Assembly (NCBI RefSeq): GCF_964275005.1
Contig: NC_092693.1
Coordinates: 22,152,835-22,216,834 of the forward strand
Source: Diadema setosum
Taxonomy: Eukaryota; Echinodermata; Echinoidea; Diadematoida; Diadematidae
Direction: 5' to 3'
Length of the DNA stretch: 64,000 nucleotides
The first letter of the stretch is position 1. Every line of letters begins with the position of its first letter. The position numbers were made by a program, and so were the translations under genes. The notes under the pieces are model-generated. The model was not told the origin of the DNA, did no database searches, and saw nothing but the letters and a program-made list of their open reading frames with translations. Of this stretch, positions 739 through 38,225 are shown piece after piece.

Positions 739-3700
739 ATGAATGGGTTGGTCTACATAGCAGTTCTGCTGTTGGGTTTTGTCGACAAACCAGCAAGCGG
801 CAGCACAGGAACGAGTAAGTATAGACAAATACAGGTAACATTATTTATGTCGATGTTTTAACGTCGTCACACTCTTAACCTACTTCATACAGAAATATGG
901 TGCATCACGTGCAAAATCTACAGAGGTTTCAGAATATCGTAGGAGACATGATAAAAGATAATCGCAAAAATGAGCAATATTTTCATGATCCTTCTTTCGT
1001 CAATCTTAAGAATTTATTGTATCTTTTATAACGTTATCTCATGGTTTATGTCGCAATCGCATGGATTATTTCCCATTTCTCTATCTTACCTTCGAGTTCA
1101 TGAGCACCTGTTTATTTTACTTTTTTTCTATTTTAATGTAGTATTATTGTTATCATCATTATCTTTACTATCATTATTGAAGATATATATATATACTATA
1201 TATATGTATATATATATATATATATAATTCATTTATCTATTTTTTTTTTAAAAGGCGCTATCTTCAGTTACAAGCACAAACGCGAGGTAAAACTTGCTTT
1301 AATCTGATATTTTCCCTGCGTGCCAATACATGCAGTACTGACGTTTGCTCAGTCATAAATTAATGGGACATTATTATCTTGACTTCAGCTATAAAGTACC
1401 CTCCTTCCGGTCTGTCTACACTGAGCGACGAAGGAATGCTATTTCGTCCTAGTTGCTTGTAGTAACGCTGATATATTGCTTCGAACATAGAATAAACAAA
1501 GTAACAAGATATAGATAGGGGGAAATCGGATTTAAACGTTGATGTTAATCTACGCGGAGTGCGCAATATCATTTTTTTTTTGAGTGATTAACATGAGTAA
1601 TGGGATTTCGTCCAAAGATACAAACAATATCGCCATATTACCAAACACTTACTGCACTAACAAAATAAACAACCCCCTAAAAAAATATCTTTTCCACAAA
1701 CGTGCTATGAAGGAAACGCAATATTATTAGAAGATTGATCTGTTGTTGTTGTTTTCTTTTGTAAGAGAACGTTGACAGATGGATAATCCGATCATTAAGT
1801 TGTTGTTTTAGAAAGTACAACAAAAACGAATGAATACAAGAAAATGAATACATGAATATCTTTGTCATTCTTCAATCAAATTTCAACACAATCCCCAATT
1901 TAAGCATTTCACGGTCTCTGTTAAAGTATCCATTACCAGTTTCATAAAATCTATATGAAATATACCATATAGGAATATATTAATGTTACATTTTCTGGAG
2001 AAGATGAAAACATGATATGAATGATGATGATAATGATGATGATGATAGGAAGAACAATAGTGAGAATAAGAAGAGGAGGAGGAGGAGGAGGAGGAGAAAT
2101 GATAACAATACTACCAATGATAAATCATAATGCTAAAATAGCAATGAGAACAAGCAGAAGGAGAGAAAGAAATCAACGCAAAAAGAAGGAGAGATCACAT
2201 CTGTACATTTATTTGATTTTTCTGTAAACATCATGTGCCCTGTGCCCCGTCAGACCCTTGAGCCTTTGTATTCTTGGTCAACTATACTTCTTCGATCCAC
2301 TTAAAAGTATATGTTGTCCTCATTGTGATCATGGTGATACTACAATGAGAATCGGGTTTCTAAATTTGTATGCACGTATTATGACCGATACCAATATTCA
2401 ATCAGTCATTCATTTAATTCATTAAGAGATTTAGTTTCTACTTTTTTCAATGTTTATATCATATTATTTACTTTCAATTAGTCATCAAAGGCTCCATCTC
2501 AGGAAGCGAAAATGTGTGGAAAAAGGAGTACAAGGCAGAGTCTACACGACAAACATGACAAAGCAAATGAACAAAGTTAACTGCGTTACGCTTTTGTTAC
2601 GACCCAAGACACATTATGATGCTATAACGTACAACAGTAAAAAGACTCACAGCACTCAAGATACATTGCATGTATAAGCTTAAGTTACGCTCACAAGGAG
2701 GTTATTTAGCAAAGGAGAAAAAGATCTTTCATTTCTCCATAGTATATTCTACGCCGATAATGATACAATCGTTGTGTGTTAGTTTCACAAGGTATTCATA
2801 ACGATCGCATTCATAATGGCCATATAATGATCATTTTCGTCGTGATGAACATGTTGCTTTCTTAGTTCGTTAATGAAGTGTTATATTTTTTCCATTATTC
2901 TCTCAGGATGGTTCCATAGCTTACAAGCCAAGCTTTTTAGTAGACCCCTCCACTTCCGTAATTCATACTACAAGCAGTCTATGATTGAATTTCTAATATT
3001 GTATTTCGTTTGTTTTGTTCTATTTTATATAATTTTCTCATAAATGGCTAATAAACAATGCGTTTTGTGTTGCTGATGAGAATTTAAAAAAAAATCAATT
3101 AAAAAAATAACAATTAATAATGATATCGATGTCGGGTTCTGTGTGCAGTCGTCTTCACGGACTTCTGCGACACAAGTCTCCAGAAGGAGGACGCCAGTTT
3201 CGTCACGACGTCGGCCGACGAATCTGCCAACATCACCGGGCCGGTTGACTGTCTCATCGTTGTCCAGGCTCTCAAATCGAACCAGCAACTCGCCGTCGAC
3301 TTCGTGGAGCCGTTCATGATCGAGGGTATGTCCTTTGAAAGGCCCGCCTCGTCCGCGATTCATGGGGCTCCATCACGATGTCAAAAAATGTAGGCCATGC
3401 CACTCGACCGCTTTTCCTTCTCCAAGATTTTTGACCTGCCACAGCCCTCAAACGTCACATTATCAGAGTCAGGTGTATTCTTTGACAGGACGATAGCCTC
3501 CTATGATCAATTTCAGTACATATACTTTCAAATTTTGGGTGATAACATTCTTTGATTATGTCCAGTAGGGATTTTGGCTTGCAACTTGGGCAACACACGT
3601 CCATTTCACCATTTAAAAAAAAAAATCTTTTTCCAATGCCTCCGTTATCAAAGTGTTCATCAAGAAACTCATTGGAGCTGCATTTACCATGTTGACTAAA

Positions 3701-6700
3701 AATATAGGTTTTACATGATTTTGTTTCACCAGCAACTGAGAAAAGGAGAAATGATAACGCTGATATTTACGCGAAGAAAATCGATTGGTACATTTTATTT
3801 CTACCAAGCCAAAATTTCTCCTTGACGCACCAACATCAAAAAGAGACCCTTACAAAACATATGTATTTCATCTTGCATAAGCGGACAATAACAGTTAGAT
3901 AAACATAACAGCACTCGATATCTACTCAAATCAAATTATTTTATATTATTTGATATGCTTTCCTGGAGGGCAAGGAGTGATGAATAATACCAACGACATT
4001 AAAAAGGAGTTGAGACGTTGTGAATTTGTCACTAATTTATCGTGTGACTGCTTTCTTTTTCTATTGGTCTATCTCAGTACAGATCAAAATCTTACAAAAA
4101 GATGCGATCTCACTCACGGAGGCTAATAGCTAAAAAAAAGTATCTGAAACTTTATGTTTTCTCCCATGATTGGCAATTCGCTCATTTTGTAGAATATAGG
4201 CTTAATATGTCAAAAGTTTAATGTGACCCCCTCCAACCCCCCCCCAAAAAAAAACCACACAAAACACAAAACAAAAAACAAATATGCAAGAAAAAATATT
4301 TATAAACATTAATAGCACATAGCTCTGTATCAAGGGAATTATAGATACGTCCTTCCCTAAGTTAAACTTGTGGAAAATCTTGTTCATGCAAGATCCTGCT
4401 GCGGTCCATGTAGATGAATATAGATACAAAAATGCGGTTGATTTATGAATTTTGACCTGATTATCGGCTATGTTGACCGGTAATTGAAACAAGGGAGTTT
4501 GAAGACAGCTTCCTGAGGCTGTCTTGCAGAAGGTGTTATCTTTCCTGTGGCTTAGTTTGTAAGTCGATGCTCCGAAGAGAAACGTTAGTGCATGACTTTA
4601 ATTCAAGCCGCTCGGGAATGGTATTAATTGCCCTGAAATGCGGCGTGTCACTCTTTCTGTCCGATCTCCTAGTCTTGGTCACTGAAGTATATCCTTTCTG
4701 ACTCAATCATTCTGTAGTCAGATTGACAAAGAGGAACCGAGCATAAAAGGTCCCGACCATCATTTTCACACGAGGTGGCTCAGTGGATAATGTTCGGACT
4801 CGAAGTCGTCACGGAGTGAGGTCCCTGGTTCGATCCCCTGCCTGCAGCGGCTGTGGCCCTATAGGCAAGACACTCTGTCATCATTGCATATAGTTCTTCG
4901 GAAGGAATTTGTATCCTTCCGTCCGTCCCATGGTAGCTTCTTCATAAACATTTTAGTGCTTCCTGAAGTGGTCACGTATATACTACAGCGTGGCCGGTAC
5001 AAGAGATTTGCGCATTACAAAAATTCAGCGACGTATATCAATACTACTGAAACTAGCCTGCCTTTAAAACACAATTTATAGCGACGTTGATAATCACTAA
5101 ATTGCTCACGTGCTCATGAAGTCGGGTATATAGAGAAGAATACAAAACGGCCCAACTAAAGTTAAGAGGAAGGATATGGTCACGTGGAAGGGGAAGAAAA
5201 CAACATATCCATGTAAAGTGATAATCTTGGTTCTAACTCCTTTGACAAGTCAGAATCCAGGAGGTGGGAAGACAACTGAAATCCCTCAATCCGTCCGCAT
5301 GCCTAGAATAAGTACCTACAGCTTTTTGATAACTCAAACCTATTCATCGATATTGTTATTCAAACAGATGACGAGAACAACCCCGCCCTACCTGACGGAC
5401 AAGGGTGTCGTCGGTCGTCGCTCATTATCTGGGACGGGGACGATCTCGAGAGCGACGACTTGATCGGTCGGTACTGTGGCTCCGACGTCCCGTCCAGCTT
5501 CGAGTCCAGCGGCCAGTTTCTTACTCTGTATTTTCTCCTCAACGACTCGGCGACGGCGCAATTTACGTTGCTGTATTCATCCTTCGATAATGGTACGAGC
5601 CCGTGATGCAGTATGTAAGTGTGTGTGTGTGTGTGGGGGGGGGGGGTATCTTTTTAGCTTGCCGGAGTCAAAGGTGCAAGTGCACTTTTGCTATCATTCA
5701 TCGTCCGTCGAAAGTCGTCCGTCGTAGGTAAACTTTCTTAAAAACATTTTCAGCGTCTTCTTGTAAACCCCACGACAGATTTTCACCAAACTTGGCAGGT
5801 AGAATCCCTAGGACGATAGGATCTCAATTTGTACAAATGGGCACCATGCCCTCCTCCCCCATAGTTAGTGCTATTATTATGAGTAAGTAGGGTCTATGTG
5901 ACTCCACAGTTTCATATTATGTGTTCATGGGTTGTTGTTGTTGTTGTTGTGTTGTTGTTGTTCTTGGTGTTGTTGTCGTCGTCGTCGTTTTTGTTGTCGT
6001 CGTCGCTGTTGTTGTTTAAGGGAGATCAGGGTGCAAATTTATGACAATTTTCACAGTTTCATCTTTTCATCATTTGGCAGGTATTCTATACTGTCGCTAT
6101 GGATTATTATATTTGTATAAATGGGCATCGTATAACATCCCACTTGGGAGCTCCCAAAACCTCTTTTCTTGTGCCTTATGGCCTTTATCTGTCGTTCATG
6201 GAAAGGTTTTCTTCTTTTTTTCAGTCATAGTCGTGCAAGAGGCAGCTATCCCTCCCAAACAACCCCAGTGCCACTCAGAGTTCATGATTATCATTCATTA
6301 ATGACCGTCTGCTTATGACATGCTTGCGTTTACCATGGATACATCCGACATTTTGCTGAGGAGGTTTAATCCTTTATGACTTCCTCTATTTATGCTAGCA
6401 AAGTTTGCAGACAATATAAATTGCCAACGCGGGTATGAAAAGCGCACGTACATCATTATAAGTCTGACGGACAAAGAGTATGATACAAAGTAGAGCATGA
6501 TTATTCTGTTCACAGTTACCCCAGTCATTCGTCTCATATCTATCCTGTAGCAAATAAATTGTTTGAGTCTGTTGCCGAAACATGAGTACACGAGAGACAC
6601 GAGCTGATGTCATTCGTTGTTATGATTGCTGAAAGCAAAGTTATTATGAAGCAAAATGTCTGACAGAATTCGGATTTTGTTGAATAAATATGCTGATATT

Positions 6701-7076
6701 ACTCCCATATTCTAAATGACCGTTATCAGAACAGTGTGAACACGGAGGAGGCTGTTCCAGATAAATAAGACATCTTATTCCGTATTATTAATCATCGTCA
6801 TCGTATAATGATTATGATTAGTATGATGATGAGGGGAATTACCATGATCGTTATCACCATAATAGTGATAATAACCATCACTTTCATTAGTAGTAGTAAA
6901 TACATGTACTATAGCAGTAGAAGCTTTAATACTAGTCATAATAGTAGTAGTAATAGTAGTATTCGTAGTCGTAGTAGTAGCAGTCGCAGGTGAGTAACAT
7001 TTAAGTAGTTGTGTAGTAGTAGTAGTAGTAGTAGCAGTGATAGTAGTAGTAGTAGTATTTGTATTATTATTATTAT

Positions 7077-7112
<36 letters not shown>

Positions 7113-9827
7113 CAGTTGTATCGTAGTAGTAGAAGTGTCGTCACCATCATCATCATCACGTTATCATCACCTTTATCATCATTATCATTCATCATCTTGC
7201 AGGTGTGTGTGATGACGAGGTGACGGAATTAAGATGCAACAACGGACGATGTGTCCCCCGATCCGTGCGATGCGACACGGCTAATAACTGTGGTGACAAT
7301 TCAGATCAGTTCATTGATGCACCTGCCTATTGTCCAGGTCGGTCTTTTGATTTTTGGTGGAAGGAAGATAATCCATATACGGTACAATGTAAAGCACTAT
7401 ATACATACTATGTATATAGTAACACAAAACGGTAAACACAGATTACGTTACATATCAAAGACTGATGAGCAGGCAATGTTGTTCACTTGCAAGTTAAAAT
7501 TTTCTGGGGAAAGAACTGCAGACAATGATTATTTATTAGTATCTACTCATTATCAATTTTTAGTTGTATCTCTTTTCAAACAGACAGAACAGAAGGCATT
7601 GTGTCTTGTATTGTATTCATGAAGCATCAAGTATCTCCTTTAACCCTATAAAGCCCAAGCTATTTTGACCCCTTCCAGGCCCAAGGGGGGGGGGGGCACA
7701 TTGTGCCCCCCCCCCCTATATAACTTCTTTATTATATGATGTATGACCGTCATATTTGGCACATGGGTAGAGCAACTCATACTCTACAAGACCCAACATT
7801 TGAAATTTCCCAAGGTCATCCACTGAGGGCGCTATTAACCAAAATACAAAGAAATACATAGGAAATACACTAAAATCATGTTTTTTCTTTTTATTTCTTT
7901 ATCCCAAGTATATGTGTTTTTATTTCATAACAATCATTTTCATATTTACCACAAAGGAAAAGCAAGTCAACCTTCACTATTTGTTACTGTTGAAATTTAT
8001 CAAGGTCAACATGTGGGGGCGCTATTCAATACAATATAAAGAAATATATGAAACCTATGATGTATTGCTTGGAATGGGTACATATGAAGGGTTTGTTTGC
8101 AAAAACCGATAAGTCCATTTTTGAAGATTTTGAAGACGATCTCTGTCATAAAGTACAAAATAATACCTCTTAAATGATATATTGGTCACTACATATAAAG
8201 GTATATTTTTTAAGTTATGGTCAAAAGAAGCAAAAAATTTCTTATTATTCTCTTTATTTTTCTTGACCTTTAATCGCAAATATCTCCATTTGGCAAATAT
8301 GGACTTATCGGTTTTTGCAAACAAACTCTTCATATATTGGTATCATATTCCATATTTCCAAAATATTGAAATTTTGAGTTTGCAGATTGATAATATGATG
8401 AAGAAATGATATTACAGGCAAAGCTTGTGTGAAGATAACACAAAATAAAAGGGTAGTCTTTGGAAAATGCTGTATTTTCGATTATTTCTATTATGTCTAT
8501 TATTTGATGCCTATGTCATATAAAAAATAAAGGAAATAATAAGAAGACCATTTCAGGTTAATTCACAACCATAATAACTTCACATTTTGGTCCTTCAGCA
8601 AATAATAGCCAAGAAAACCCCCATTTCATCCATTATTATATTGTTAACTGAAATTTGAACAGAAAATCATGCAAAATCTGACGAACATGGTTGTCAGTTT
8701 ACGGTTGACATGGCAACCAGCAATATCGAACATAGCTAAATTATATATCAAAATGTTCGCAATAAGATTTTAGGAAAAGTCACCAAATTTGGTTGAAATC
8801 GAGTAAAAGGTGTAGGAGTGGCAAACGAAAAGATGGTAGGGGGGCACAATGTGCCCCCCCCTTGGGCTTTATAGGGTTAACCCTAAAGGGGCCGGGCTTT
8901 TTTGGCTATACTCAGACCGGGGGGGGGGGGGGGGGGGGATGGATTCCGCCCCCCCCCCCCCCCCCCGAGATCTCGGCCATCGGAGGTGCGATCGCGATGA
9001 AATTTTGCATGCGTGAGACCCGCGTCATAATCTACAAGATTGTGTCATAAGATTTTTTGAAACAATCAATTTCTAATTTTAATTAATTAATTATGGAAAT
9101 TAAGCTCAAGGTGATATTTTAGCCTAATTAAAAGCATTGAGAGTCAAATTTTTGATCTGTAAATCTGTTTTAGCATATTCAACAATTGTACATCACAAAA
9201 GCTTCCAAAACTCATTTCAATTCTTATGTATTTTATTGTTTTCAGAATTTCTTATGTATTTCTTTGTTTTTCAACTTTTGTTTTTTCTTTGTTTTTTCAT
9301 CGGAAATTGTCACTGACCACTTTTCTACCATAATTAGCACAAAATTAATCAATGAAAGTGATTAATTGTAAAAATAATCAGGTTTTTATGACTTTCATGA
9401 CAGAGCACTGTTTTCCATAGGAAATGTACACAAAATCACAAAATTTTGCCCGTTTTGGGGCGACATTCCGTTACAAAAATGGGCGTGGCTTCGCAAAGGT
9501 ATGCGCGGACGTTGCAAATTTGGTCTCAAAAGTTGCGCGAGACTTGAACGAAGAAAGTCAAGAAGCCTCGCGACGAGGCCTTCTCGCGTTACAGAATTAT
9601 AGCGCGAAACGTCGAGGGGGGGGGGGGGGCGGGTTCCGCCACCCCCCCCCCCCCGGCCCTTTCAGGGTTAACCAATGAGAAATTGGTTGAAAGGCCTAAT
9701 CCTACTGTCTTAATACTGGACTGAATAGCTCGAACAAATCATCCACTACAACTGCTACAAATTATTTATGTTGTCAGTCGTCTATGAACACCTTTTCGCC
9801 GTCCGTGTTTCCCTATTATTATTATTA

Positions 9828-9912
<85 letters not shown>

Positions 9913-10913
9913 CATTATCATCATCATCATCATCATCATCATTAATGTGAGCATGGAGGTACAAAGAAAGACCTTTTCTACCTCCATGATATGAGTAAAT
10001 GTGGTAATGTTATCATATTTGATTATCATGAGCACTGTGTACAAAAAAAACGTAATCATTTGATAATAGACTACTGCTATCAGCGCCGTCATCGTCTCTG
10101 TTAATTCCAGACACTGATCAGACCGTGGCGCAGTCGTACCTCCCACTGTGGGTGATCATGGCCGTACTGGGTGCCATCCTCCTCGCTCTGTTCCTCTACT
10201 GGTTGCTATGGAGACCGGGATACCTGATCTGGAGGCTTGGGTGTTGCCGGAATCTCTGGCACGGGTGCTGCCGGGACTTAAGGGCGAAGTGCTGTTGTCG
10301 CTCGCTCAATTACAGCAAACAATCAGGCAACCGTGCTCGTGGGAGGAACAAGGATGGTGAACCTTCCGGAGAGGAGGACGCTGACGAAGACGACGATGAT
10401 GTCGACGGGGATGCTGGATGTCTCTGCTGCGGTTGTTGCGGTGCAAGGAGTCGTCGAGGGCGACGAAAGAGAGAGCTAGCGGACTCGACGTCGAGTTTGG
10501 CACCGTTCGCCCATCCGGGTCTCTACAAGGAAGGTCTAATACTACCTCCCGATGCCGGAGACCGTCCGATACTACACCGAGAGGGGCTGATGCTTCCATC
10601 GGACAAAGGAGAGCGGCCGAAGCTCCGGCGAGAGGGGCTGATCCTTCCGCCCGATACCACCCGGCCTGTTCTCTATCGGGAAGGCGTTATGGTCCCCGAG
10701 TACGATCACCGTCCCCAGCTGTACAAAGAAGACGCCATTCTGCCGCACGCCGAGACTAAGCCACCTTCTTGGGGTATCTACCATGAAGACACCATCGTAC
10801 CGCCACCATCCACCTTAACACCCCCAACGCTGGGCGAGGTGCCGAAAACACAACGTCGGGTGTACGACTACCAGGTGGACTGGGATGGCGGCCATGCCCG
10901 GGAAGCGAGATGA
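739..10913 (+). CDS. Gene A: CUB-LDLa single-pass membrane protein with a long repeat-bearing tail
   Basis: Five exons: 739-814, 3149-3325, 5368-5592, 7203-7337 and 10111-10913. All introns are GT/AG and phase 1; the sum is 1416 nt, or 471 aa plus stop. Exon 1 gives a signal peptide ([14 protein letters not shown]). Exons 2 and 3 form one CUB domain (about residues 30-158) with four cysteines, including the typical GRYCGS. Exon 4 is an LDLa module with all six cysteines and the NNCGDNSD calcium-site motif. Exon 5 carries a transmembrane helix at about 215-238, then cysteine clusters ([23 protein letters not shown]), an acidic block ([10 protein letters not shown]) and about six tandem repeats of the type [14 protein letters not shown] (about 342-434). 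CUB and LDLa modules usually bind protein ligands with calcium, so a surface receptor or co-receptor is inferred; the ligand is unknown. Genes B and C share the exon plan. It resembles a one-CUB version of NETO-like proteins. The start is the first Met giving a signal peptide in frame. Confidence 0.88.
4774..4985 (+). mobile_element. tRNA-derived SINE copy 1 (intron 2 of gene A)
   Basis: A tRNA-like head has an A box (TGGCTCAGTGG, 4776-4786) and a B box (GGTTCGATCCC, about 4827-4837), spaced as in an RNA polymerase III promoter. A tail with ATGGTAGCTTCTTCATAAAC follows. The same head and tail recur at 22441-22665, which defines one SINE family. The head does not fold as a complete tRNA, so this is a retroposon and not a tRNA gene. 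Confidence 0.75.
5933..6016 (+). repeat. GTT/GTC trinucleotide microsatellite
   Basis: Imperfect GTT repeat passing into GTC in intron 3 of gene A. The Leu/Cys/Arg-rich reading frame over it is only a translation of the repeat. Confidence 0.85.
6893..7135 (+). repeat. AGT trinucleotide microsatellite just upstream of the gene A LDLa exon
   Basis: Long imperfect AGT/GTA repeat with interspersed ATT and GTC units, followed by an ATC-rich stretch up to the splice acceptor at 7201-7202. The Ser-rich open frame here is the repeat read in one phase and is not a protein. Confidence 0.9.
7644..8876. mobile_element. piggyBac-type non-autonomous element 1
   Basis: Bounded by TTAA at 7640-7643 and 8877-8880. 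Terminal inverted repeats read CCCTATAAAGCCCAAG on the left and CTTGGGCTTTATAGGG on the right. TTAA target duplication with ends starting CCCT is the hallmark of piggyBac elements. A GGGGGCACAATGTGCCCCC palindrome lies subterminally at both ends. No transposase frame is visible in the 1.2 kb interior, so it is non-autonomous. It sits in intron 4 of gene A. Confidence 0.85.
8881..9667. mobile_element. piggyBac-type non-autonomous element 2
   Basis: Starts CCCTAAAGGGGCCGGGC directly after the TTAA at 8877-8880 and ends CCCGGCCCTTTCAGGG before the TTAA at 9668-9671. Subterminal parts are long G runs facing long C runs (about 8920-8966 and 9616-9655), which could fold into hairpins. No transposase frame is visible. 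It abuts element 1 and shares one TTAA with it, so one probably inserted into the other's target site. Confidence 0.82.
9821..9943 (+). repeat. ATT/ATC trinucleotide microsatellite
   Basis: About 30 ATT units passing into ATC units, in intron 4 of gene A. The Ile/Met, Leu/Ser and Asn/Asp-rich open frames on both strands are artefacts of this repeat. Confidence 0.95.
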
Positions 10914-22500: not shown

Positions 22501-25500
22501 GGTTGTTATGGTTGTGCCATTAGGAAAGGCACTTTATCCTTATTGCCTAGTTGGGGGGGGGGGAGGGGGAGGGGAGGGGGAGGGAAAGGGGGAGGGGGAG
22601 GAGGAAGGGGATTTTAAGCCATTGGTTGTATGGTAGCTTTTTCATAAGCACTGATTCCTTAGTTGTCACATAAAATACATTCAAACAAGCACAATCACAA
22701 ATGTGGAAATTCAGTGATACTATTGAAATTGACTTACAAGTCGTAATTGCAAAATACTACACATGTACAATCGTAAAATATGTACAGGGTCTCAGTTAAT
22801 ACATGCAACTCTTGTTAAAAAAGCAACTTCTTGTAGCAACAGCCAACCATGGAGCAGGAGTCTTGTCATCACCATGACACTTGCCATTGCAGCAAAACTT
22901 GCTATCATTGTGACTTTTTATGTAATGTAGCCATGGGGTCCGTTTCAGGAAAGACTTATGAGAGACTTTTCTTTGCACACTAATTACAGACTTCATGAAA
23001 TGGATTTGAAAGTGTCTTATAGCTACATATGTAGCAAAAAAAGCTGCTGAAAAGTGCTTATCCAATGAGCAACTTTGGCCATTCTGAGATTTATGTAAAG
23101 ACTTCTTTGTGATGACTTCATGACACGGACCCCAGGAGTCAGACAAAGCAAGGATGATCAGACTTTCTTATCCATCAACATGGAATGAACTATTGAAGGA
23201 ATGAAATCACACCATCTATAAAGAAATACACAGCAGGTATAAGTGATTAAGTCTGCTATAAAACTGTTGTACTTTACTCATATTGGGCATGTTTATGAAT
23301 TTTTTACTTTACTTCTTATGTATGATTACATCTCTCAACTTCTTTGGAGCATTGTGTTTGACTTTATTGTATGACAACATGTAGGCCTATATGTCTTATA
23401 AGCCGGGCTCAACATAAACTTCTTTTTCTCTGATGGCCTGTTTTGGCCACTATAATCTTTGAATCTGAAATTTTGGCGGCCAAAAATTAGGGGAACTATA
23501 AATATTCATTTTGAATTTTAGCTGTCCTATCCCACCACCTTAAGATAAACTTTTGGGAAATTTGGTGGCTTGACATCAAATTTTAGTGGCCCTGGGCCAC
23601 CGGTCCACTGCTAATGTTAAGCCCTGCTATAAGGATCTACCACAATGACCACAATCCTATCCGGCCACCAAAAGATAAACTTTCTGGAAATTTGGTGGCT
23701 TGACATCAAATTTTAGTGGCCCTGGGCCCTGGGCCACCTGGCCACTGCTAATGTTGAGTCCTGCTATAAGGATCTACCACAATGAGAGGTCTTCCTTCCT
23801 CACCATTGACTTCCTCTTCAAGGACAAAGCGGTTGAACTGCAGCAGCAACTTCTTGCCCGGATCCGTGGCCAAGACTACATTGCAGTCTTGGTTATTTCT
23901 GTAGCTCAGGCTACTGTCAGGCTCCACTAGACCTGTGATGGCAGCCTGTATGGTGGTGTTGCATGAGTTGTACAGGTAAGCTGCATGGGGAAAGAAGGAG
24001 TGCAGATAAAGAATACAAGAAATACTGCTGTGAATTGAACTACAAAGTAAGCTCATTCATTTTGATACTTATACCCATGAAAGACCCAAGATTAAAATTG
24101 GAACTTGGGTACACTAGTCGCATATACATGTATGCCAACCAACCTGCTTGAAATGCTAAACATCCTGCTCAGTTCTTTGCAATCCCCCCCCCCCAAAAAA
24201 AAAAAAAAATGCCCTTTTCAGGACTATTAAACCCACTGTATCGCAAACTAACCACAGTACAATTCGTACATATTGAGAATGCATGCAAGCTCCTGTATAT
24301 AACATAATTTTAGCATGCATGGGAGTCTGCTGGCATCATATTGTGACTGACTGTCCCACTGATGGAATGAGCAAGTGTGACTGATATTATTTGAATCTGG
24401 TATGTTGCTTCTTTCTTCCTTCCTTTTTTTTTTTTTTTCATTTTGAAGTCATAAAAAGGGGAGGATGTACATTATACAATGTACTTCAGTGCAATACTTT
24501 ATTAAATTTTGGTAAATACCATGTACTCAGTAAAACAGGACTAAGCAAATATGCTGACACTGCAGGTAAAGTTCAAGTCTCAACACTGGACAAAACTCAG
24601 AATTACATGTACATTGTGCATTTAATACATTGTATGTCACACATGTAAATCTGCATTGTGTGCATGTGCAATTTATAGGATCTTAACCCCCTGTGCCTCT
24701 ACAAAAAGAGGATCAGTTGGCAAAATCTGGATTTTTTCAATGTGTCTGTAAATTTAATACTTGGAACAAGTATACCTGAGTTCCTTGATCATCACCATCG
24801 AGCCAACAAAATGGCTTGGTACTGCATGTGCATGTGAAAAGGTCGTCCGCATTAGCTTCAGTTCAGCATAGTGATCAGTGTTATTAGGTAGGTAGCTAGA
24901 GAGATAGCTACACTGTAGTTGGCCTTTGTAAAGAGACCCAATACTCAATACACTGTAGTTTAGTGCCACCATAGAGAGCCTAGAGGTATTGTACAGTGTG
25001 TACCTCAATGCCGACAATGGTGTCACTGGCACTGCACTCATTGTGCAATATCATGCATATCATTCTACATGTATATCTAACGGTGATTTAAGACTAGGCC
25101 CTATTATATAGATCTCTTCAACAATTTGCAAAAAAAAAAAAGGTTAAACATTGATACTTAAAATGGTGAAGAAGTTGATGACATTGTCTTTAACACGGCC
25201 ATTGGTGGGTCTGATACCGTGAAAAGACTGAAATATAAACTTACACTAAATTTATAGTCTACATACACAGTCAGAGAGCTAGACTCCTTCATGCTACGGA
25301 GTTCTAGTCCTAACGTGTTAGGTTTAGAGGTAGAGGTAGAGGTAGCGCCAGTAAATAATGAGAAACATCAGACGATCTTGGTATATGATGTTCAAGAGTT
25401 TATTGGCCGTGACCGAGTCAACTGCACACACGTAACACATAGCGTGCACAACACGTGGAAACCGATCAGAGTATGGAAAGCCACTTGATACAACATAACT

Positions 25501-28500: not shown

Positions 28501-29043
28501 ATCCCACCGCTGCCACCACGCCAGTAAATAATGAGAAACATCAGACGATCTTGGTATATGATGTTCAAGAGTTTATTGGCCGTGACCGAGTCAACTGCAC
28601 ACACGTAACACATAGCGTGCACAACACGTGGAAACCGATCAGAGTATGGAAAGCCACTTGATACAACATAACTATAATTATAATCATAATGGCGTAGAGG
28701 TAACTAGCTATAGCCCGACCAGACGCTGTGAGAAGCACAGGTCACAGCAAGCGACTGGGCTACTAGATCTAGCAATAGCATTGTAGCAGTAGTAAACATA
28801 AGAGAGGTGGCGTGCTGTGTAAGACTACATCATTTTACATGCATGGGACTACAGAACGGAAGTGTTGATTTATACGCCGAGCTCATACCACTAGTGAATA
28901 TGTCTACAAAATGCTCATGAACTTTTGCATTTCTTAGAAAAAAAACAGAGATACCTACCAACTTCTATTGCTGACGTAAATGACGAACATATTGCTACAA
29001 ATATCGTGATGAACGCAATCATTTCCTGGCCCAGCATCATCAT
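19588..29043 (-). CDS. Gene B: CUB-LDLa single-pass membrane protein with a short tail
   Basis: Five exons in transcript order: 29043-28959, 23980-23804, 22254-22063, 20805-20692 and 19796-19588. All introns are GT/AG and phase 1; the sum is 777 nt, or 258 aa plus stop. Exon 1 encodes a signal peptide ([20 protein letters not shown]). Exons 2 and 3 make one four-cysteine CUB domain; exon 2 is 177 nt, exactly as in gene A. Exon 4 is a complete six-cysteine LDLa module ([12 protein letters not shown]). Exon 5 holds a helix ([20 protein letters not shown]) and a charged tail of about 36 residues ending [10 protein letters not shown]. The start is the first of three consecutive Met codons. It is convergent with gene A and divergent from gene C. 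Intron 1 contains a young LTR element, and intron 2 a SINE. Its role is inferred to be a cell-surface receptor or co-receptor. TTTATT at 19160-19165 may be its poly(A) signal. Confidence 0.88.
22441..22665 (+). mobile_element. tRNA-derived SINE copy 2 (intron 2 of gene B)
   Basis: Head GTGGCTCAGTGGATAA (A box) and CTGGTTCAAGCCC (degenerate B box), then a tail containing TATGGTAGCTTTTTCATAAG, the same family as 4774-4985. A purine-only GGGGGA-type tract at about 22551-22612 has expanded inside it. Confidence 0.7.
23401..23785 (+). repeat. Inverted-repeat element with a partial tandem duplication, intron 2 of gene B
   Basis: Starts GCCGGGCTCAACATAAACTT and ends with AATGTTAAGCCCTGCTATAA, which is imperfectly complementary. 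The right half (about 23538-23650) is repeated at 23655-23785 with shared AATTTGGTGGCTTGACATCA and CTGCTATAAGGATCTACCAC. It is related to the GGTGGCCC-rich element at 53863-54323. The second copy ends about 20 bases from the splice donor of the CUB exon. Confidence 0.65.
25346..25521 (-). repeat. 3' LTR of the element at 25346-28694
   Basis: 176 bp direct repeat identical by eye to 28519-28694, from CGCCAGTAAATAATGAG to AATCATAATGGCG as read on the + strand. In element orientation it is the 3' LTR, because the purine tract adjoins it. Confidence 0.85.
27701..28531 (+). other. Long antisense open frame inside the LTR element
   Basis: 276 codons on the strand opposite to the element, with its stop just inside the LTR. 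The translation is rich in Ser, Thr, Glu and Cys (16 or more cysteines), has no hydrophobic segment and no recognisable domain. On the element's own strand shorter frames overlap it. It may be a chance frame in repeat-like sequence, an antisense gene or captured sequence; I cannot decide. Confidence 0.3.
28519..28694 (-). repeat. 5' LTR of the element at 25346-28694
   Basis: The matching 176 bp copy. The tRNA-Leu primer site (28501-28518) abuts it directly, which sets the orientation as - strand. Confidence 0.85.
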
Positions 29044-29367: not shown

Positions 29368-29610
29368 GCGTTTTTTTTTTAAGACGGCACAGATTGGGGC
29401 ATGGCGCGTGTTAAACCTATGGGAAAAACGTTGGGTTATGGTTTTTGGTTATGGTTAGGGTTAGGGTTAGGTTTGGGGTTAGGGTTAGGGTTAGGGTTGG
29501 GGTTAGGGTTTGATGGTTAGGGTTAGGATTAGGATTAGGGTTAGGTTTAGGAATAGGGTCCCCGATAGATTTTTAGTTACCCAATCTGTGCCGTCTAAAA
29601 AAAACACGCA
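29368..29610. mobile_element. MITE carrying TTAGGG-type repeats
   Basis: Inverted ends AGACGGCACAGATTGGG (29382 on) and CCCAATCTGTGCCGTCT (29580-29596), extended outward by T and A runs and GCGT/ACGC. Flanks GCGGATGC and GCCGGATGC look like an imperfect target duplication of about 9 bp. The interior (about 29447-29545) is a degenerate GGTTAG / TTAGGG array. Confidence 0.7.
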
Positions 29611-29696
29611 AGCCGGATGCATCATGCATAATGCCTGTTATGCATACTAGAACTTAGCTGCGACAGGCTAGCCATGCTGGGGGCATTTAATGAAAG

Positions 29697-29825: not shown

Positions 29826-30671
29826 TTTTCTTCATGAATGTCCCCCTGCAGATGGGGAAACATCGGCGCTCTGCTCTGGCTGTTCTCTGAATGATTGTGC
29901 CTTGGGTAGTTAGTATTCAAATCATACATAATTGTATTTTACTCAGTAGGCCTACCGTTAATTCACAGCTGTTAAACAATCCTTGAAATAGTGTACAGTT
30001 TAATTCGAATTATAATCCAATGGATCGGGAAAAAATCTTATTTATGTTTATACATAATTGATGCATTGTTTGTATGACTATAATGGTACATTGCAATTAT
30101 ATATCCTAGTGGCCAAATAAGGATGATAATAATAATGCAGGTCTTCAAGATCTGAGCAATTTTCTGATTTGTTAAGTTCAAGGGCAGACGTCAAAAGTCA
30201 CCACAGTCTGTAGGCCTAGTTTCAGCCATTGCGAAAAGAAGAAATAAAAGCATAAGTGAAGAAAGATTGGCATTGAGGTATTTTTTGTTCTTGTAGAGTA
30301 TCCTAAGAACGTGATAATAAAAATTGCTCTAATTAAAAACAATCAACAAAAGCAACTGGATCCTTTTGTGATAGGGTTGTCAAGGGAATTCATTTTCAAA
30401 GCGTTCACATTTTATTACAATTTAAATGTTGTAATGAAAGCATCACTTTAGCAAAAGCTTTCTATAGTAAAGGATATGCAACAACAACATTGACTCAAAT
30501 GCATTTATCTCTTTATTCCAATGTCCAATGTGCGCTGTGGTGCGTATCATCACGAAGTATTTCGTCATCAGAATAGACTATACAGATCAAAGGCAAGCTC
30601 ATAAAACCTCGTTGTCCCACATGATATAGGGCTATGCAAAGGCAACTAGCAGTGCAACAACACGATCGATG

Positions 30672-30707
<36 letters not shown>

Positions 30708-31250
30708 AGGATGGCAGAAACGAGTTTTGCGCCGAAAATTGATTTCCTAGAAGAAAGCTCTCTCTCCCTCCCTCTCCCCCTCTCTCTCTATCTATCTCTC
30801 CAAGGCTCAAGCTCTGCCTTTCTCGTCCTTGTTTCTTCCCCTCTCACTTCTTCTTTCTCTCCATTGTATCATCATTGTGTGCATCTTCGTGATTATTGTT
30901 TCGCTCATTCATACTCCACCTCCCTCATCAACATTCATTGGTGCTGCACCGACATCTCACTGAGAGATGAAACAAGATGACCAGATGACGTGCTTGCTGC
31001 GTCTGACGCGATTAAATCATTTTGAAAATTTGCTCGACTGACATGTGCATTGTTGGTTTGATGGATATGTCGTTGTGATGAACGCTAATAACAGACATTA
31101 CCGGCTGAAAAATGATGTTTGTATATCACAAACATTTCTTATACGCAACGTGGATACTAATCTTGCATTTGTGATGTACAACTATTGAACACAGTCGTTT
31201 GGAAAGTGAATATTTGTTTTATATTTATCTTTTTATCTCATCTACGCAAC

Positions 31251-32236
31251 ATGGATACTCATTTTGCTGCCTTCTGCCTCTCAATGGGCCTACTCTCAAA
31301 ATATTTATTTAGCTGTGTGCTGTCAACAGTTCCAGCGGGTGAGTTATCTTACTGATTTTTCTTTCTTGCTATGAATACATTACTGTGTTTATCAATGTTT
31401 AAATCAGTACACGATAGATGGGACAATTTTTTAGACATATTATTATTGAATCGCATTTACATTGACGAAAATTCATGCATATTCACCCCTCTGCATAATG
31501 GTATCTCACTACCAGTTAATACCAGTTATGTCTTTACATTCAGCCATATTTTTTTTTATTGTATTTCTTACTTTGTTGTCATTTAAGTTAGTCATGTAGT
31601 AAACGTATCTGTCTTTATCTTCCCTTCCAATAACTTCAAGGATACTATTGCACAATCAAATCATCCAGATTTTAATCTTTGTAGTGTCTCTCCGGCATGA
31701 TCACAGTGACATTGCAAATACAATAACAGATGAATAGATACAGTAACTATAATTGAATAAAAAGATATAAAACGATAAAATAAAAATCCCAAACTTATGC
31801 TATAATATGTCCATGCACTTAATGTTGTTCATTCCTATTTCGAAAATTACAATGCACATGAGTCTAGTGAAGTTTCCTCTTTAAGTGCTACATTGTTGAA
31901 AATAAAGTGTTTATGTTGTTGTTAGACAACTCAAGCAATCCGTTGAGTGCCGTTAGCCTTTAATCAAGGCATTCCACACCACCTTCTTCTATGCGAGGAA
32001 TTTGATATCCATGCAGTATTACAATTCTCGTGCATGGATATCTAATTCCTCGCCTATCTTTATTCTCTTCGTACCCACCTTGATTGAAGGCTAGGGTGCT
32101 TGTATTTTCTATCATTAAAGTATATTTTATTCATTTTTTAGTGAATTTTTTTAAATTATTCTTATAATTAATTACATGTATATTACGCAGATAAAGGCGC
32201 AAATATTCAAATGTGAATGACGCGCTTCTTAAACAT

Positions 32237-32271
<35 letters not shown>

Positions 32272-35200
32272 CGAATCCACCATCCAGTGGTTCACTGGAG
32301 CTTGACATGGCATGGCGGAAATATCCAATCAGTGTGAATCAAAACATTCCTATTCCGCCCATTTCAAGTGTAACGTAAAGTGCCATTTCCACTCTGTGCA
32401 ACCATGAGTTTAATAGGCTTGTCCCATTCAACCACTTCGTCCTATATTCTACATGTTGTTGATAAAATCACATTTACCAAAAACTGATCGATTTTACGAT
32501 GCAAGACTTTGAAATGAACAAGAGTCATTTAACGGTCATCACTACACATGAAGTTAAGTGTAGGAATGAGGAGAGTGATTGATATGAAAATAAACCTCTT
32601 CATTAAAGCGATTTGTTATCTGATCAAACATTCATGTATGTAATACATACTGCGGATCTATTTTAAAAAGTCTTTTTGTGAGGGAGGGGCAAAAGAAAAG
32701 TAGACCTAAAGTAAAGCATATCTCAATGACTTCTGTATATATCTCATAACCGTCAAATCATCCCATAAAGGGGAGGCCTATTTGTACTTGATGATTTAAA
32801 CTTTTATCTTTAAATGACAAAAAATCACTCCAAGTAAGTTGTATTCGAACGAGTAACAAAATAAAATGCATCAAACTTTTGCAACAAAAATGAACAGAGA
32901 AAACTCTGCTACATACATAAAGTTGAATTAGTGACGAAGTTGCCTTTTACATCTCACCAGTTTATATGCTCGAAGAGTGCAACGGGGTGATATTCGTGGG
33001 ACCTTCGACAGGTTTCGCCAGTCTCGTAATATCGCAGAGGACGGACAGCTATCCGAACGATGTCGCGTGTTCAATCACCATTCAGACGAACAAGTCACGG
33101 TTACTCGCTCTGACATTTGCAGATTTTGACGTTGAGGGCGACCTTGACCGCATCTGCTTTGATGCTCTCTGGTTTTTAGACGGAGTTGCCGACTCTTCCT
33201 TCAACATGGCTCAAAATGGTATGACATTTTGGAAGGATATTATGTAACATGAAACCCCCCCCCCCCATAATATATCATTTCTAATCATCTGGCGGCGATA
33301 ACACGTTGATTATAGCGACCACTGGCAACTATATATCATAAGCTGTTTTCTCTTTGATTTGGAAAAAAAAAATGTAACAATGAGTGTTGGGAATATTCGT
33401 TTTTTATAGTAACTGTTATAATGTTAACAGTTGTTATTTGAAGTATACAAAACAATAACATCACATTATCTTGGGATGTTGTATGCATAACGATCGCGAG
33501 CGTGACGTTTTTGAATTTCAGGTACTCAATACTGTGGCCCTGGGGAAAATATCGACAACCTCGCTTCCAGCGGATCTACCGTCACTCTTATGCTCACAAC
33601 AGATCAATATCACACCGCACGTGGATTCACACTGGTGATTACATCTTTCCATGTGGGTGAGGCATCCTAGTTTTGTTTCAAACTCTTCAGTACTCTATCT
33701 TGAGGATGATAATGCAGAGTGAGGCTACAGAGTTTCTGAGAGTCAAGGTTATGAGTATATTATGTGGAATTAATTACTCATCTGCATAGTCCAACAGTAA
33801 TTGCTGAAACCTCCATGTGACTGCCCCATCTCCTACAAGAAAACTTCTTTAAAGTACAAATCTACTGCGTACTCACCCATGACTTCACTGCTTCACTGCA
33901 TACTTTTTCATTATGTTTTTGCCTATGAAACCGAGAAAGCTATAGTGATCACAAAATCATTGTTATTCGTAAATATGCGAGAAAAAACCCCCACAGAAGT
34001 TGGGTGTCTTCTTTTACAAAGAAATTGATAGATAATAGCAACAACATGGCTATAGAACTCTCAGCAAGAACAGAAAAAAGGCAAAACTTGAGTTGCGGGT
34101 TCTTTCTATGGAGTTAAGGAGCATCAACAAAATCATAACTTCCTTGAACAGTAAAACAAACAAAATACAAACGATCCTGGCATTGAGTATGGGAAAAAAG
34201 TGAAAAAGTTCTTTATGTATGGAATATCATACGTGGATTCTACAGGGGAAAGATTTCTGTATTTTGTTTCTCAATTCCAACCGAAGGAGTCTGTGCCGAG
34301 AATGAATTCTCGTGTTCCAACGATCGCTGTATCAACAGACAACTTGTTAATGACACATGGGAGAACTGTGATGATGGCAGTGACGAAACAATGCTAGGTG
34401 AGGTCTCGTAGGTTCTTTAAAGGGTGTGTACAGTTCTGGTTGAGGTGAGGATTTAGCTTTTAACGTTTTGCGAGATATTCAGAAACCACTCTATGAGATG
34501 TCAAAGAGCATGCAATTCTAAGGGGTATCAAAAGTTTATTTGATGAAAATCGGTTTTGAAATGGCTGAGATATCCAAAAACAGGGTGAAACAAAGAGATC
34601 CTAATAAAAGGCGCGGCCTGTCGCCTTTTATTATTATCACTTTTTTTGGGGGGGGGGATATCTCGGCCATTTGAAAACCGATTTTCATCAAACATACGTT
34701 GAATCCTTCTTAAAATCACATACTCTTTCATAACAGGTTTCTCATTATCTCACTTAGGAATGTTCAAAACATGAATCCCCACCTCAACCAGTACTGTACA
34801 GTCCCTTTAACCATCATCTGTACCGAAATAATCTGGATCATAATAGGCAGTGGCGGATCCAGAGGGGGGCGCACTGGGCGCGCGCCCCCTCGTTATTTTT
34901 TGTTAAAAAAACAAAAGAAGTAGAAAGAAACTAGAAATGTCGCTACGGCGACTGATGCCTCCGCCATAATGCATGATTCTCCCATAATAGGTGTATAGTA
35001 CAATGTCTTCACAATGTGTGATGACAGTTTCACATAACTGGCAAAATATCGAAATAACAGGTTTATCGGAAATATCTTGAATGTTCACTTTCCACGAACT
35101 GGGTTTGCTATAATTGTCTATTAAAGAGTGCAGGTACACATATTTGGGGAATTGAAAATTTTTACTTGACTTCTGACCGACCTTATTATAAGTTTATGCA

Positions 35201-38200
35201 TTGAGTATAATTTTCAAGGTATGAAGAAAGAGTGCAATTACAGTACAAAATATATCTTTTTTTTTTTCATTTAAACCTAACCTTTGACCCTTAACCTTTG
35301 ACCTTCTGGCTGGAAATTTCCAAGAGAATCTCCATTAAGTAATACATGTACATATATTAAATTTTAAAACTAATAATGCAATCATTGCATATACTAGTAT
35401 ATGAGGGAAATAGTAACATTTTGAGGAGTTGATCTTGACCTTTGACCCCTGACTATTGACCCATGACCCCTAAATTCCCTAGATAATCCCTGCCAGTCAG
35501 TACATGCATATGTACCAAGTTCCATGAAGATACATTGAACCATTTGTGAGAAAAGTGATATTGCAACATTTTCACCTAACCTTTGACCTTTTGACCTTTG
35601 ACCTTATGACATGAAACTCTCTCTGGAGAATCTTTATGCAGTAGTACATGTCTACACTAAGTTTCAAGAAAATAACTGCGGGCATTGCATAGATATGGGG
35701 AAATAGCAAAATTTTTAGCATTTGACCTTGACCTTTTGACCTTTGACCTCTTGTCAATGTCGCTAAAATCTACTCAACTAATTGTCCCATCATACATCAT
35801 CCTTGGACCAAGTTTGGTGAAAGCTGCTTCATCCAGTTTTGAGTTATCACGTAAACAGATACATTTTAGGATTTGACCTTGATCTTTGACCTTTGACCTC
35901 GGTCCGGTTTCACTGAAAAACTAATCAAGTAATTGTCCCATCATACATCATCCTCCAACAAAGTTTGGTGAAATTTGCTCCATACAGTCTTGAGTTATCG
36001 CGTAAACGGATAAATTTCATGATTTGACCTTGACCTTTGACCTTTAGCCGATTTCACCTAAAATCTAATCAAATCATTGCCCCATCATACTTCATACTTG
36101 GACCAAGTTTGGTAAAATTCCAGTAAATATTACTCAAGTTATCGCGTAAACGAAAGCGGACGGACGTACGGACGGACGGACGGACAACCCGAAAACATAA
36201 TGCCTCCGCCACCACTACGTGGCGGAGGCATAACTAGAAATGTCGCTACAGCGACTGGTTATATCCCCGCCAAACGACATTTCATAAGCTTTGGTAAAAA
36301 AACTGAGGAAGTAGTTAAATCCGCAAGATCTTTCCTTGATCTTCTGCCATTAATATGCCGTTACCATGGCAACGTACTTTCGGGTACTGTCGAAAAATGC
36401 GTCTTGCACATCTACAACCAAAGGCACACATCTGTACCAAGTTTCATGGAAATTGGGCAAAAACTGACGAAGTAGTTTGCAACACAAAATTTTCCATCAT
36501 TTTGGCTCATAATATGTGAGCTGTTACCATGGCAACATACTTTTTGTCACTGTCAAGAAATGTGTCATGCTGACCTATATCCTAAGACAAACATTCAATA
36601 TGAATTCCATGAGAATTGGAAGAACACTGATGAAGCAGTTTTGCCATGAAGCATTTTGCCCTATTTTACCAATAACATGCCGTTACCATGGCAACGCACT
36701 TTTTGCCACTGCGGAAATATGTGTCTTGCACATTAACATATTCAGATGAACATCTGTACCTAATTTCATAAAAATTGATCAAAAACTGTGGGAGGAGTTC
36801 GCGACGCAAGATTTGTACCCATTTTTGCCCATAATATGCCGTTACCATCGCAACGTACTTTTGGGTACTGTCAAAAAATACGTCTTGCACATCTACAACC
36901 CAAGGCACACATCTGTGCCAAGTTTTATGAGAATCGGTTGAAAACTGAGGAAGTAGTTCGCGACGCAAGATTTGCAACGGACCGACCGCCCGACCGACCG
37001 CCCGACCGACCGCCCGACCGACCGCCCGACCGCCCGACCGTCCGCTGATTCCTATATACCCCCTTCAAACTTCGTTTGGCGGGGGTATGAAAATGGGGGG
37101 GGGGGGGGGGGGGGGCTCCATCCCTTTACGGAATTCCTGGATCCGCCCCTGTTGAGGTGAAGTTCGCCCAAACATAACAGACACTTTCTGTAATGTGCAG
37201 TCAATGTCGCCTAAGGCTAATGCAAAATGACGGGAAAAGATCCTTCGACGTACGTAAATTTCGACTTCTACTTATTCATAGATGTTTAGATCCATCTGGG
37301 ATAGAATTTTCTTCGACTTGGCCAGTGTTTCGACTTGTGCTGGTGTTAAGTTAACACAATCTTTAAAAATTTGAAATCAAATCTTGTTGCGGTTTATTTT
37401 TTTTTTTCTTCTTCTTCTTCTTCTTTTTTGATACGCACTGTAGAGCAATGCAACGCACGTCCGGTCGTAGTTATTCCACGGGTATTGATAAAATTACATC
37501 GCATTCTAGAGTGCTTTCAAATCAAACGGAGGTAACTGTTAATAAAAACGCACCCGCACATACCCTGTTTGGTTTATTTGAAAGAAAAGTGTTTACAATC
37601 TACAGAGAAAAAGAATTGTTCTCCCCTTTCGTTGACACTTGCTTGCGTGAAAAATTAAATTTTTCGGGTCATTGTTGTCGTTGTTGGTTTTGTGTTGCTT
37701 GTTGATTTCGTTTACAATAACGCATTTGGATGGGTACTTCATATTCCTCCATTTATAATCGCAATATACCATTTGTTGTTATACGTGTACAATGTATTAA
37801 ATGCAGGACGCACATCAGATAGGGCACTGTCGTAAAGGTAATGCATGAGAAAAATAGGAAGACCCGCACAATTATGGTTAGACGATTGTCGACCTACGAC
37901 CGCATTGCTATAATTTTCTTTTCTTCTTTCTTTTTGTTCCATCCTAGCTGACACTTTCACTAATGGGGATACGGGGAAAGCTTCACAATTTAGCGACGGA
38001 CTGATAATCGCTCTAGGCGTGTGTGCAGGCGTCTGCGTGCTCCTGATACTCGCAAGTACGGCGTGCTTTGTCTATCTAAAGTTCTGCCAAAACAAGCACC
38101 AAGATCACCATGGCAACACGAGAGAGACAGCTGCACCGATCAGGACAGTTTTTCGACGCACGCCGCGCGTGAGACACACGACGGCAGCACGTAACTCGAC

Positions 38201-38225
38201 GCAGACAATGAATGCATGGATGTAA
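31251..38225 (+). CDS. Gene C: CUB-LDLa-like single-pass membrane protein with an altered LDLa
   Basis: Five exons: 31251-31338, 32961-33218, 33522-33656, 34287-34397 and 37948-38225. Introns are GT/AG and phase 1; the sum is 870 nt, or 289 aa plus stop. Exon 1 is a weak signal sequence (FCLSMGLLSKYLFSCVLSTV). Exons 2-3 form a CUB domain with four cysteines (EECNG, ACSIT, RICFD, QYCGP). Exon 4 is LDLa-like (VCAENEFSCSNDRC, then ENCDDGSDE) but lacks cysteines 4 and 6; the position of Cys4 is Asn within NDT, a potential N-glycosylation site. An acceptor three bases later (34290) would also keep frame. Exon 5 has a helix (GLIIALGVCAGVCVLLILAS) and a basic tail of about 45 residues rich in Arg and Thr. 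It is the same gene plan as A and B. Exon 4 lies only 23 bases from a TTAA-flanked MITE. Confidence 0.82.
31948..32093. mobile_element. Palindromic MITE in intron 1 of gene C
   Basis: Outer inverted repeat TAGCCTTTAATCAAGG (31954-31969) with CCTTGATTGAAGGCTA (32078-32093), and inner arms GCGAGGAATTTGATATCCAT and ATGGATATCTAATTCCTCGC around a 15-base loop. No coding. Confidence 0.65.
32236..32272 (+). repeat. CAA trinucleotide microsatellite
   Basis: About 12 perfect CAA units in intron 1 of gene C. Confidence 0.95.
34421..34806. mobile_element. TTAA-flanked MITE in intron 4 of gene C
   Basis: TTAA at 34417-34420 and 34807-34810 flank ends AGGGTGTGTACAGTTCTGG and CCAGTACTGTACAGTCCCT (complementary with small differences). 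Subterminal TTGAGGTGAGGA faces TCCCCACCTCAA, and the inner arms GATGAAAATCGGTTTT and AAAACCGATTTTCATC continue the symmetry. TTAA duplication suggests a piggyBac-type origin, but the ends differ from the CCCT ends of 7644-9667. Confidence 0.75.
34918..36236. mobile_element. Non-autonomous element with TGACCT repeats
   Basis: Starts AACTAGAAATGTCGCTACGG then GATGCCTCCGCCAT, and ends with a GGAC tetranucleotide run (about 36162-36184) and hairpin TGCCTCCGCCAC / GTGGCGGAGGCA (36201-36230), then TAACTAG. The interior repeats the words TTTGACCTTTGACCT and ATCATACATCATCCTTGGAC several times. No transposase frame. A 3' hairpin followed by CTAG would suit a Helitron-like end, but the ATGCCTCCGCCA / TGGCGGAGGCAT symmetry would equally suit an inverted-repeat element; the class is not fixed. 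Confidence 0.55.
36232..37091. mobile_element. Second, related non-autonomous element
   Basis: Begins with the same AACTAGAAATGTCGCTAC leader as its neighbour, then TATATCCCCGCCAAAC. It ends TTCGTTTGGCGGGGGTAT, the complement of the start. The body contains four diverged copies of a block of about 160 bp (GCCGTTACCATGGCAACGTA, then GTCTTGCACATCTACAACC), followed by a CCGACCGACCGC run (36981-37040). No coding. It lies head to tail with 34918-36236 in intron 4 of gene C. Confidence 0.6.

What the first reader, a model, noticed from the sequence alone, without database searches (positions are those of the whole stretch)
739..38225. Cluster of three CUB-LDLa membrane receptors with one exon plan but unrelated tails
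Genes A, B and C each have exactly five coding exons (signal, CUB first half, CUB second half, LDLa, transmembrane plus tail), with every intron in phase 1. Ectodomain sequence has diverged a lot and the cytoplasmic tails share nothing visible (about 230, 36 and 45 residues). One CUB plus one LDLa plus one helix is not the two-CUB NETO layout. This looks like a lineage-specific receptor family in which the extracellular plan is kept and the signalling part is swapped.
Basis: partly seen in the sequence, partly recalled or inferred. Interest (0 to 1): 0.72.

Follow-up and report, generated by a model that had tools for sequence, protein, structure and literature searches.

The report
Three small CUB-LDLa membrane receptor genes
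An animal genome carries three neighbouring genes for small membrane proteins of a layout already known from a fly axon-targeting protein, with alike outer parts and different inner tails; one tail holds an unusual run of six short repeats.

Summary
Genes A (+), B (-) and C (+) each have five predicted coding exons; 12 of 12 introns are GT-AG and phase 1. All three proteins exceed Pfam's gathering scores for CUB and LDLa. Their tails share nothing.

Corrections: the exon plan is not identical, since C's CUB-splitting intron lies 23-27 residues beyond the A/B one. C's LDLa lacks two cysteines. A's tail holds six 16-19 residue repeats whose core is held while silent sites diverge.

As CUB-LDLa modules, B is the best match of both A and C among those compared. 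By CUB alone, A is nearer neuropilin-2, B ties between C and neuropilin-2, and only C is clearly nearest B. B's LDLa is nearest NETO2. One CUB, one LDLa and one helix is the published layout of Drosophila Loaf, so the architecture is not lineage-specific.

Best reading: minimal Loaf/NETO-like adaptor receptors that bind another membrane protein through CUB-LDLa and sort or anchor it through the tail. The window's own genome could not be searched.

The parts
739..814 (+). Gene A exon 1: start codon and signal peptide (by eye)
   Evidence: donor gtaagt, phase 1
3149..3325 (+). Gene A exon 2: CUB, first part
5368..5592 (+). Gene A exon 3: CUB, second part
7203..7337 (+). Gene A exon 4: LDLa, six cysteines, long last loop ([11 protein letters not shown])
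10111..10913 (+). Gene A exon 5: stalk, transmembrane helix, 234-residue tail with 12 Cys in its first 90 residues and six 16-19 aa repeats, stop
28959..29043 (-). Gene B exon 1: start codon and signal peptide
23804..23980 (-). Gene B exon 2: CUB, first part (177 nt, same length as in A)
22063..22254 (-). Gene B exon 3: CUB, second part
20692..20805 (-). Gene B exon 4: LDLa, six cysteines
19588..19796 (-). Gene B exon 5: transmembrane helix, about 40-residue tail, stop TGA
   Evidence: (model printed to 19598) and the last codons and stop read
31251..31338 (+). Gene C exon 1: start codon and signal peptide
32961..33218 (+). Gene C exon 2: CUB, first two thirds (intron 2 not at the A/B place)
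33522..33656 (+). Gene C exon 3: CUB, last third
34287..34397 (+). Gene C exon 4: LDLa lacking cysteines 4 and 6
37948..38225 (+). Gene C exon 5: stalk, transmembrane helix, about 51-residue tail, stop

Best explanation
A, B and C encode small type I membrane proteins: signal peptide, one CUB, one LDLa joined to it by a fixed short linker, one helix, and a tail of its own. In layout they belong to the broad class of juxtamembrane CUB-LDLa proteins that includes Drosophila Loaf (one CUB, one LDLa) and NETO/SOL-2 (two CUBs, one LDLa). Most likely they are adaptor or auxiliary receptors. The CUB-LDLa unit binds another membrane protein on the same cell, as CUB2-LDLa of NETO2 bridges ligand-binding domains of GluK2. 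The helix packs beside it, and the tail sets where the complex goes. B and C have short tails suited to sorting. A has a cysteine-rich, possibly palmitoylated, tail with six copies of a [KRH]E[GD]x[IM][LV]P unit that could act as a multivalent docking strip. Shown: gene models as predictions, domains, shared linker length, tail repeats and their codon pattern. Inferred: the partner, the sorting role, palmitoylation and docking. Confidence about 0.85 in the class by layout, about 0.35 in the mechanism.
For: Domains above curated cut-offs in 3 of 3. All four CUB cysteines are kept in 3 of 3; A and B have six LDLa cysteines; C lacks the fourth and sixth, which are partners in the LDLa fold as I recall it. 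Whole-module phmmer bits: A-B 58, B-C 70, A-C 36-37; NETO2 CUB2-LDLa to B 55, to A 21, to C 26. Junction plus LDLa: B-NETO2 44 bits, both reading F-x-E-P-P-C. Loaf has extracellular CUB and LDLa and a predicted transmembrane domain; [quoted passage not shown] It is mainly endosomal, gave no adhesion in S2 cells, and alters the effect of Lrp4 (PMC8205486). CUB2 and LDLa of Neto2 contact LBDs of two dimers and its TM1 contacts GluK2 M1 (PMC12580572). Tail repeats: lag-17 self-similarity reached by 0 of 2000 shuffles; over the 16-codon units pS 0.74, pN 0.42, and 68 of 100 identical residue pairs use different codons.
Against: No expression, partner or localisation data. No Loaf sequence could be compared, so descent is untested. 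CUB-only scores do not tie A to B or C, and B's CUB ties between C and neuropilin-2. Against the whole NETO2 chain B scores 72.6 bits over two stretches, as much as B-C. The CUB tree joins the three at 89/92, below the tool's star level, with long branches. An aligned CUB-LDLa pair does not prove an auxiliary role: enteropeptidase has it too. The repeat constraint lies mostly in the positions used to find the units: without them pS is 0.69 and pN 0.55.
Confidence: 0.5

Rival explanations
1. A lineage-specific receptor family: one ancestral gene duplicated locally, the ectodomain was kept and the signalling tail was replaced.
For: Three neighbours in 38 kb; introns 1, 3 and 4 correspond; module scores B-C 70 and A-B 58 bits exceed the outside CUB-LDLa modules compared (NETO2, enteropeptidase, recalled LDLRAD2); tails unrelated; window clade 89/92 in a 13-CUB tree, label as clustered in 4 of 500 shuffles.
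Against: A-C (36-37 bits) is below A to recalled LDLRAD2 (43-45); A's CUB is nearer neuropilin-2 and B's ties with it; intron 2 differs in C; the layout is also in Drosophila; replacement and divergence of tails look the same.
Confidence: 0.25
2. Endocytic uptake receptors: CUB-LDLa captures a soluble or lipoprotein ligand and the tail drives internalisation.
For: LDLa and CUB occur in uptake receptors such as LRP2 and cubilin, which are among the hits; B's tail has YHRV near the membrane, which fits a YxxPhi sorting signal (motif recalled; tail).
Against: A single LDLa with no propeller domain; C's LDLa lacks two cysteines; by eye A and C tails show no clear sorting signal away from the membrane.
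Confidence: 0.15
3. Independent assemblies: phase 1 CUB, LDLa and TM exons were shuffled together more than once, so the shared layout is convergent.
For: Class 1-1 modules are the rule in exon shuffling (PMC8001218 passages); the CUB of A and the LDLa of B point to different outside relatives; intron 2 differs in C.
Against: Same order, same linker length and same split residue at intron 3 in 3 of 3 genes that sit next to each other.
Confidence: 0.1

Closest known systems
Drosophila Lost and found (Loaf, CG6024)
   Same: Extracellular CUB and LDLa, one predicted transmembrane domain, cytoplasmic domain; [quoted passage not shown] its Figure 2A was not held).
   Different: Sequence not compared here; tail and gene structure relative to A, B, C unknown.
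NETO1/NETO2, Drosophila Neto, C. elegans SOL-2
   Same: Membrane-next CUB-LDLa-TM; B shares the linker and LDLa pattern with NETO2 (44 bits on junction plus LDLa); Drosophila Neto isoforms also differ in their intracellular domains (PMC9083331 passages).
   Different: Two CUBs there, one here; CUB2 of NETO2 is a poor match to all three CUBs (5-9 bits).
LDLRAD2 (vertebrate)
   Different: No Pfam CUB hit in the recalled sequence; CUB-only score to A 7-8 bits. In two LDLRAD2 papers the term CUB does not occur; a third was searched only for the gene name.
C. elegans LEV-10
   Same: Type I protein with CUBs and an LDLa; its extracellular part suffices to cluster acetylcholine receptors (PMC9083331 passages).
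   Different: Five CUBs; the LDLa is dispensable there.
Enteropeptidase heavy chain CUB-LDLa
   Same: CUB directly followed by LDLa; 48 bits to B and 42.5 to C.
   Different: Part of a protease; only 19.5 bits to A.

Membership tests
Loaf-like one-CUB one-LDLa membrane protein (layout) | One CUB, one LDLa, one transmembrane helix, in this order | tested here: met
   no other CUB/LDLa exon found in the window; on predicted gene models
Loaf-like one-CUB one-LDLa membrane protein (descent) | Groups with Loaf in a tree | not testable with these tools
   no animal protein collection on hand; Loaf is not among the PDB hits listed (lists of 19 and 21 capped at 60)
Loaf-like one-CUB one-LDLa membrane protein (function) | Endosomal localisation, effect on other surface receptors | not testable with these tools
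   needs cells; published for Loaf
NETO | Two CUB domains | tested here: not met
   one CUB per gene; none further found in introns
NETO | Juxtamembrane LDLa after the last CUB | tested here: met
LDLRAD2 | Specific similarity to LDLRAD2 above other CUB-LDLa proteins | tested here: inconclusive
   43-45 bits to A against 21 for NETO2, but B is higher (58) and the LDLRAD2 letters are recalled
One lineage-specific paralogue family | Ectodomains closer to each other than to outside CUB proteins | tested here: inconclusive
   holds for B-C and A-B as whole modules; by CUB alone false for A, tied for B, true for C
One lineage-specific paralogue family | Same intron positions | tested here: not met
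   3 of 4 introns correspond in all three; intron 2 only in A and B

The most novel reading that the evidence does not exclude
The cluster is a true locally duplicated receptor set in which the membrane-next CUB-LDLa unit is constant and the tails were replaced, and the six-copy [KRH]E[GD]x[IM][LV]P strip of A is a new multivalent cytoplasmic docking module that turns a generic CUB-LDLa adaptor into a scaffold.
Probability: 0.15. Interest if true: 0.55.

Novelty: new member of a known kind. Interest (0 to 1): 0.3.

Why it matters
If these are Loaf/NETO-like adaptors, three minimal one-CUB forms with different tails sit side by side, which would let one ask which part of such a protein picks the partner and which part sets its destination. 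The repeat strip of A, with its core motif kept while silent sites diverge, is a concrete unexplained feature worth a search in other species.

Tried and rejected
Rejected: NETO membership (one CUB only). Rejected: extra CUB or LDLa exons elsewhere in the window. Rejected as evidence for kinship: the all-phase-1 pattern, since signal-peptide and module boundaries favour phase 1 in general (PMC8001218 passages; start of the abstract of PMC1626468 in the listing). Weakened on re-check: the constraint on A's tail repeats, because the ten codons include five positions used to find the units; without those, over the whole unit, pS is 0.69 and pN 0.55. Led nowhere: a strict LDLa/CUB pattern scan that printed nothing because the patterns were too tight (the looser one finds the three LDLa); NCBIfam (weak hits far below cut-off); searches for echinoderm, sea urchin or deuterostome CUB-LDLa receptors (7, 10 and 18 papers), in which I saw only titles and abstract starts and none named a single-CUB single-LDLa receptor; LDLRAD2 papers (46 papers, 30 listed; passages of three). 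The species was not determined. Structure prediction was not run: the tool takes sequences that the DNA gives letter for letter, and spliced products are joins.

Full report
What is there. Reading the window and splicing by script gives three genes. A (+): 739-814, 3149-3325, 5368-5592, 7203-7337, 10111-10913, 471 residues. B (-): 29043-28959, 23980-23804, 22254-22063, 20805-20692, 19796-19588, 258 residues (the script's model stops at 19598; the last codons and the stop were read). C (+): 31251-31338, 32961-33218, 33522-33656, 34287-34397, 37948-38225, 289 residues. All 12 introns begin GT, end AG and lie in phase 1. Exon G+C is 0.40-0.59 against 0.387 for the window. These are predictions; no transcript was available.

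Domains. Pfam CUB and LDLa exceed their gathering scores in 3 of 3 proteins. A hydrophobic peak (19-residue Kyte-Doolittle mean 2.71, 3.14, 2.86) follows the LDLa in each; the same scan marks the signal peptides of B and C, while that of A was judged by eye. A six-frame scan with profiles built from these three plus a typed consensus finds no further CUB or LDLa in the window: best other hits 5.7 and 6.1 bits, while five shuffled windows reach up to 11.3 and 8.8. So one CUB and one LDLa per gene is what the DNA offers, and the two-CUB NETO layout is not met.

Corrections to the finding. Introns 1, 3 and 4 fall at corresponding places in all three; intron 3 splits the same linker residue (SFDN[G]VC, VFEE[P]PC, SFHV[G]VC). 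Intron 2 corresponds in A and B only, within four residues; in C it lies 23-27 residues further on, just before TQYCG. The mature ectodomains hold ten, ten and eight cysteines: C lacks LDLa cysteines 4 and 6. By the LDLa disulfide pattern that I recall (1-3, 2-5, 4-6) these two are partners, which fits loss of one bond in a working protein rather than decay. Tails measured from the helix end are 234, 40 and 51 residues, with no similarity above shuffles.

The tail of A. It has 12 cysteines, all in its first 90 residues, and an acidic stretch, then six units spaced 17, 17, 16, 16 and 19 residues: [60 protein letters not shown]. Lag-17 self-similarity was reached by 0 of 2000 shuffles. Over ten codons per unit pS is 0.77 and pN 0.34, but five of these positions were used to find the units. 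Over 16 codons the values are 0.74 and 0.42; leaving out the five, 0.69 and 0.55; 68 of 100 identical residue pairs use different codons. So the units are old copies whose core motif has been held while silent sites diverged, and the rest of each unit is loosely held. This argues that the exon is coding and that the core matters. No Pfam match falls in the tail.

Are the three ectodomains special to each other? Against shuffles all three pairs score far above chance (z 18-30), as any two CUB-LDLa proteins would. Whole-module phmmer bits: A-B 58, B-C 69-71, A-C 36-37. Outside modules: NETO2 CUB2-LDLa 21 (A), 55 (B), 26 (C); enteropeptidase best 19.5 (A), 47.8 (B), 42.5 (C); recalled LDLRAD2 43-45 (A), 34-36 (B), 35-36 (C). 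Against the whole NETO2 chain, which has two CUBs, the sums are 31.8 (A), 72.6 (B, two stretches) and 27.7 (C), so B is as near to all of NETO2 as to C. Split by domain the picture blurs. CUB only: A-B 21.7, A-C 6.7, B-C 37, but A to neuropilin-2 a2 32.6 and a1 31.6, and B to neuropilin-2 a1 37.6; C's best outside CUB is 24.7. Junction plus LDLa: B-NETO2 44, B-A 38, B-C 30-31, A-LDLRAD2 34-35, C-LDLRAD2 33-34. A tree of 13 CUBs (three from the window, nine copied from printed PDB alignments, one recalled) joins the window three at 89/92, in 88% of 200 bootstrap trees, with long branches and no starred branch.

What is known. Drosophila Loaf is described with extracellular CUB and LDLa and a predicted transmembrane domain (PMC8205486: abstract, passages and section 12 seen). 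[quoted passage not shown] Loaf sits mainly in endosomes, did not aggregate S2 cells, and alters the effect of Lrp4. NETO1/2, Drosophila Neto and SOL-2 have two CUBs and one LDLa; LEV-10 has five CUBs and one LDLa (PMC9083331 passages). In GluK2-Neto2, CUB2 contacts the upper LBD lobe, LDLa the lower lobe in the neighbouring LBD dimer, and TM1 the channel's M1 (PMC12580572 passages): this is the part of NETO that A, B and C keep by layout.

How it most likely works. The CUB-LDLa unit is held close to the membrane; four residues separate the last CUB phenylalanine from the first LDLa cysteine in A, B, C and NETO2 (alignment). It binds a second membrane protein in cis, and the tail decides sorting or anchoring. 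For B and C a short tail suits a passive or sorting role. For A the cysteine-rich stretch next to the membrane suggests lipid anchoring and the six repeats a multivalent docking strip. Partner, sorting, anchoring and docking are inference.

Verdict. A sound observation with one detail wrong (the shared exon plan) and an interpretation that is only part right. Ordinary as an architecture; the A tail is the unexplained part.

Noticed in passing
10111-10913 (+): Tail of gene A: six 16-19 aa repeats with a held core motif, plus cysteine clusters; no Pfam match in the tail.
   Followed up: partly
25346-25522 and 28519-28695: Two identical 177-nt direct repeats 3.2 kb apart in intron 1 of B, with a 283-aa open frame (27680-28531) that runs into the second; looks like a recent LTR-like insertion. 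The open frame has no Pfam match up to E 0.1.
   Followed up: partly
43757-55637 (-): NUDT21 (CFIm25) gene in seven pieces downstream of C; the peptide joined by eye hits Pfam NUDIX_2 at 1.9e-78. The name NUDT21 is recalled.
   Followed up: partly
44424-46341: Seven copies of a 275-bp tandem repeat, 94% matches, between two NUDT21 exons.
   Followed up: no
58738-62465 (+): At least five similar exon-like units (..QQNVSSD..) in tandem, one with an in-frame stop inside it; a gene growing by exon duplication or a decayed array.
   Followed up: no
about 29440-29545: Interstitial run of TTAGGG-like repeats just upstream of the start of gene B (read).
   Followed up: no
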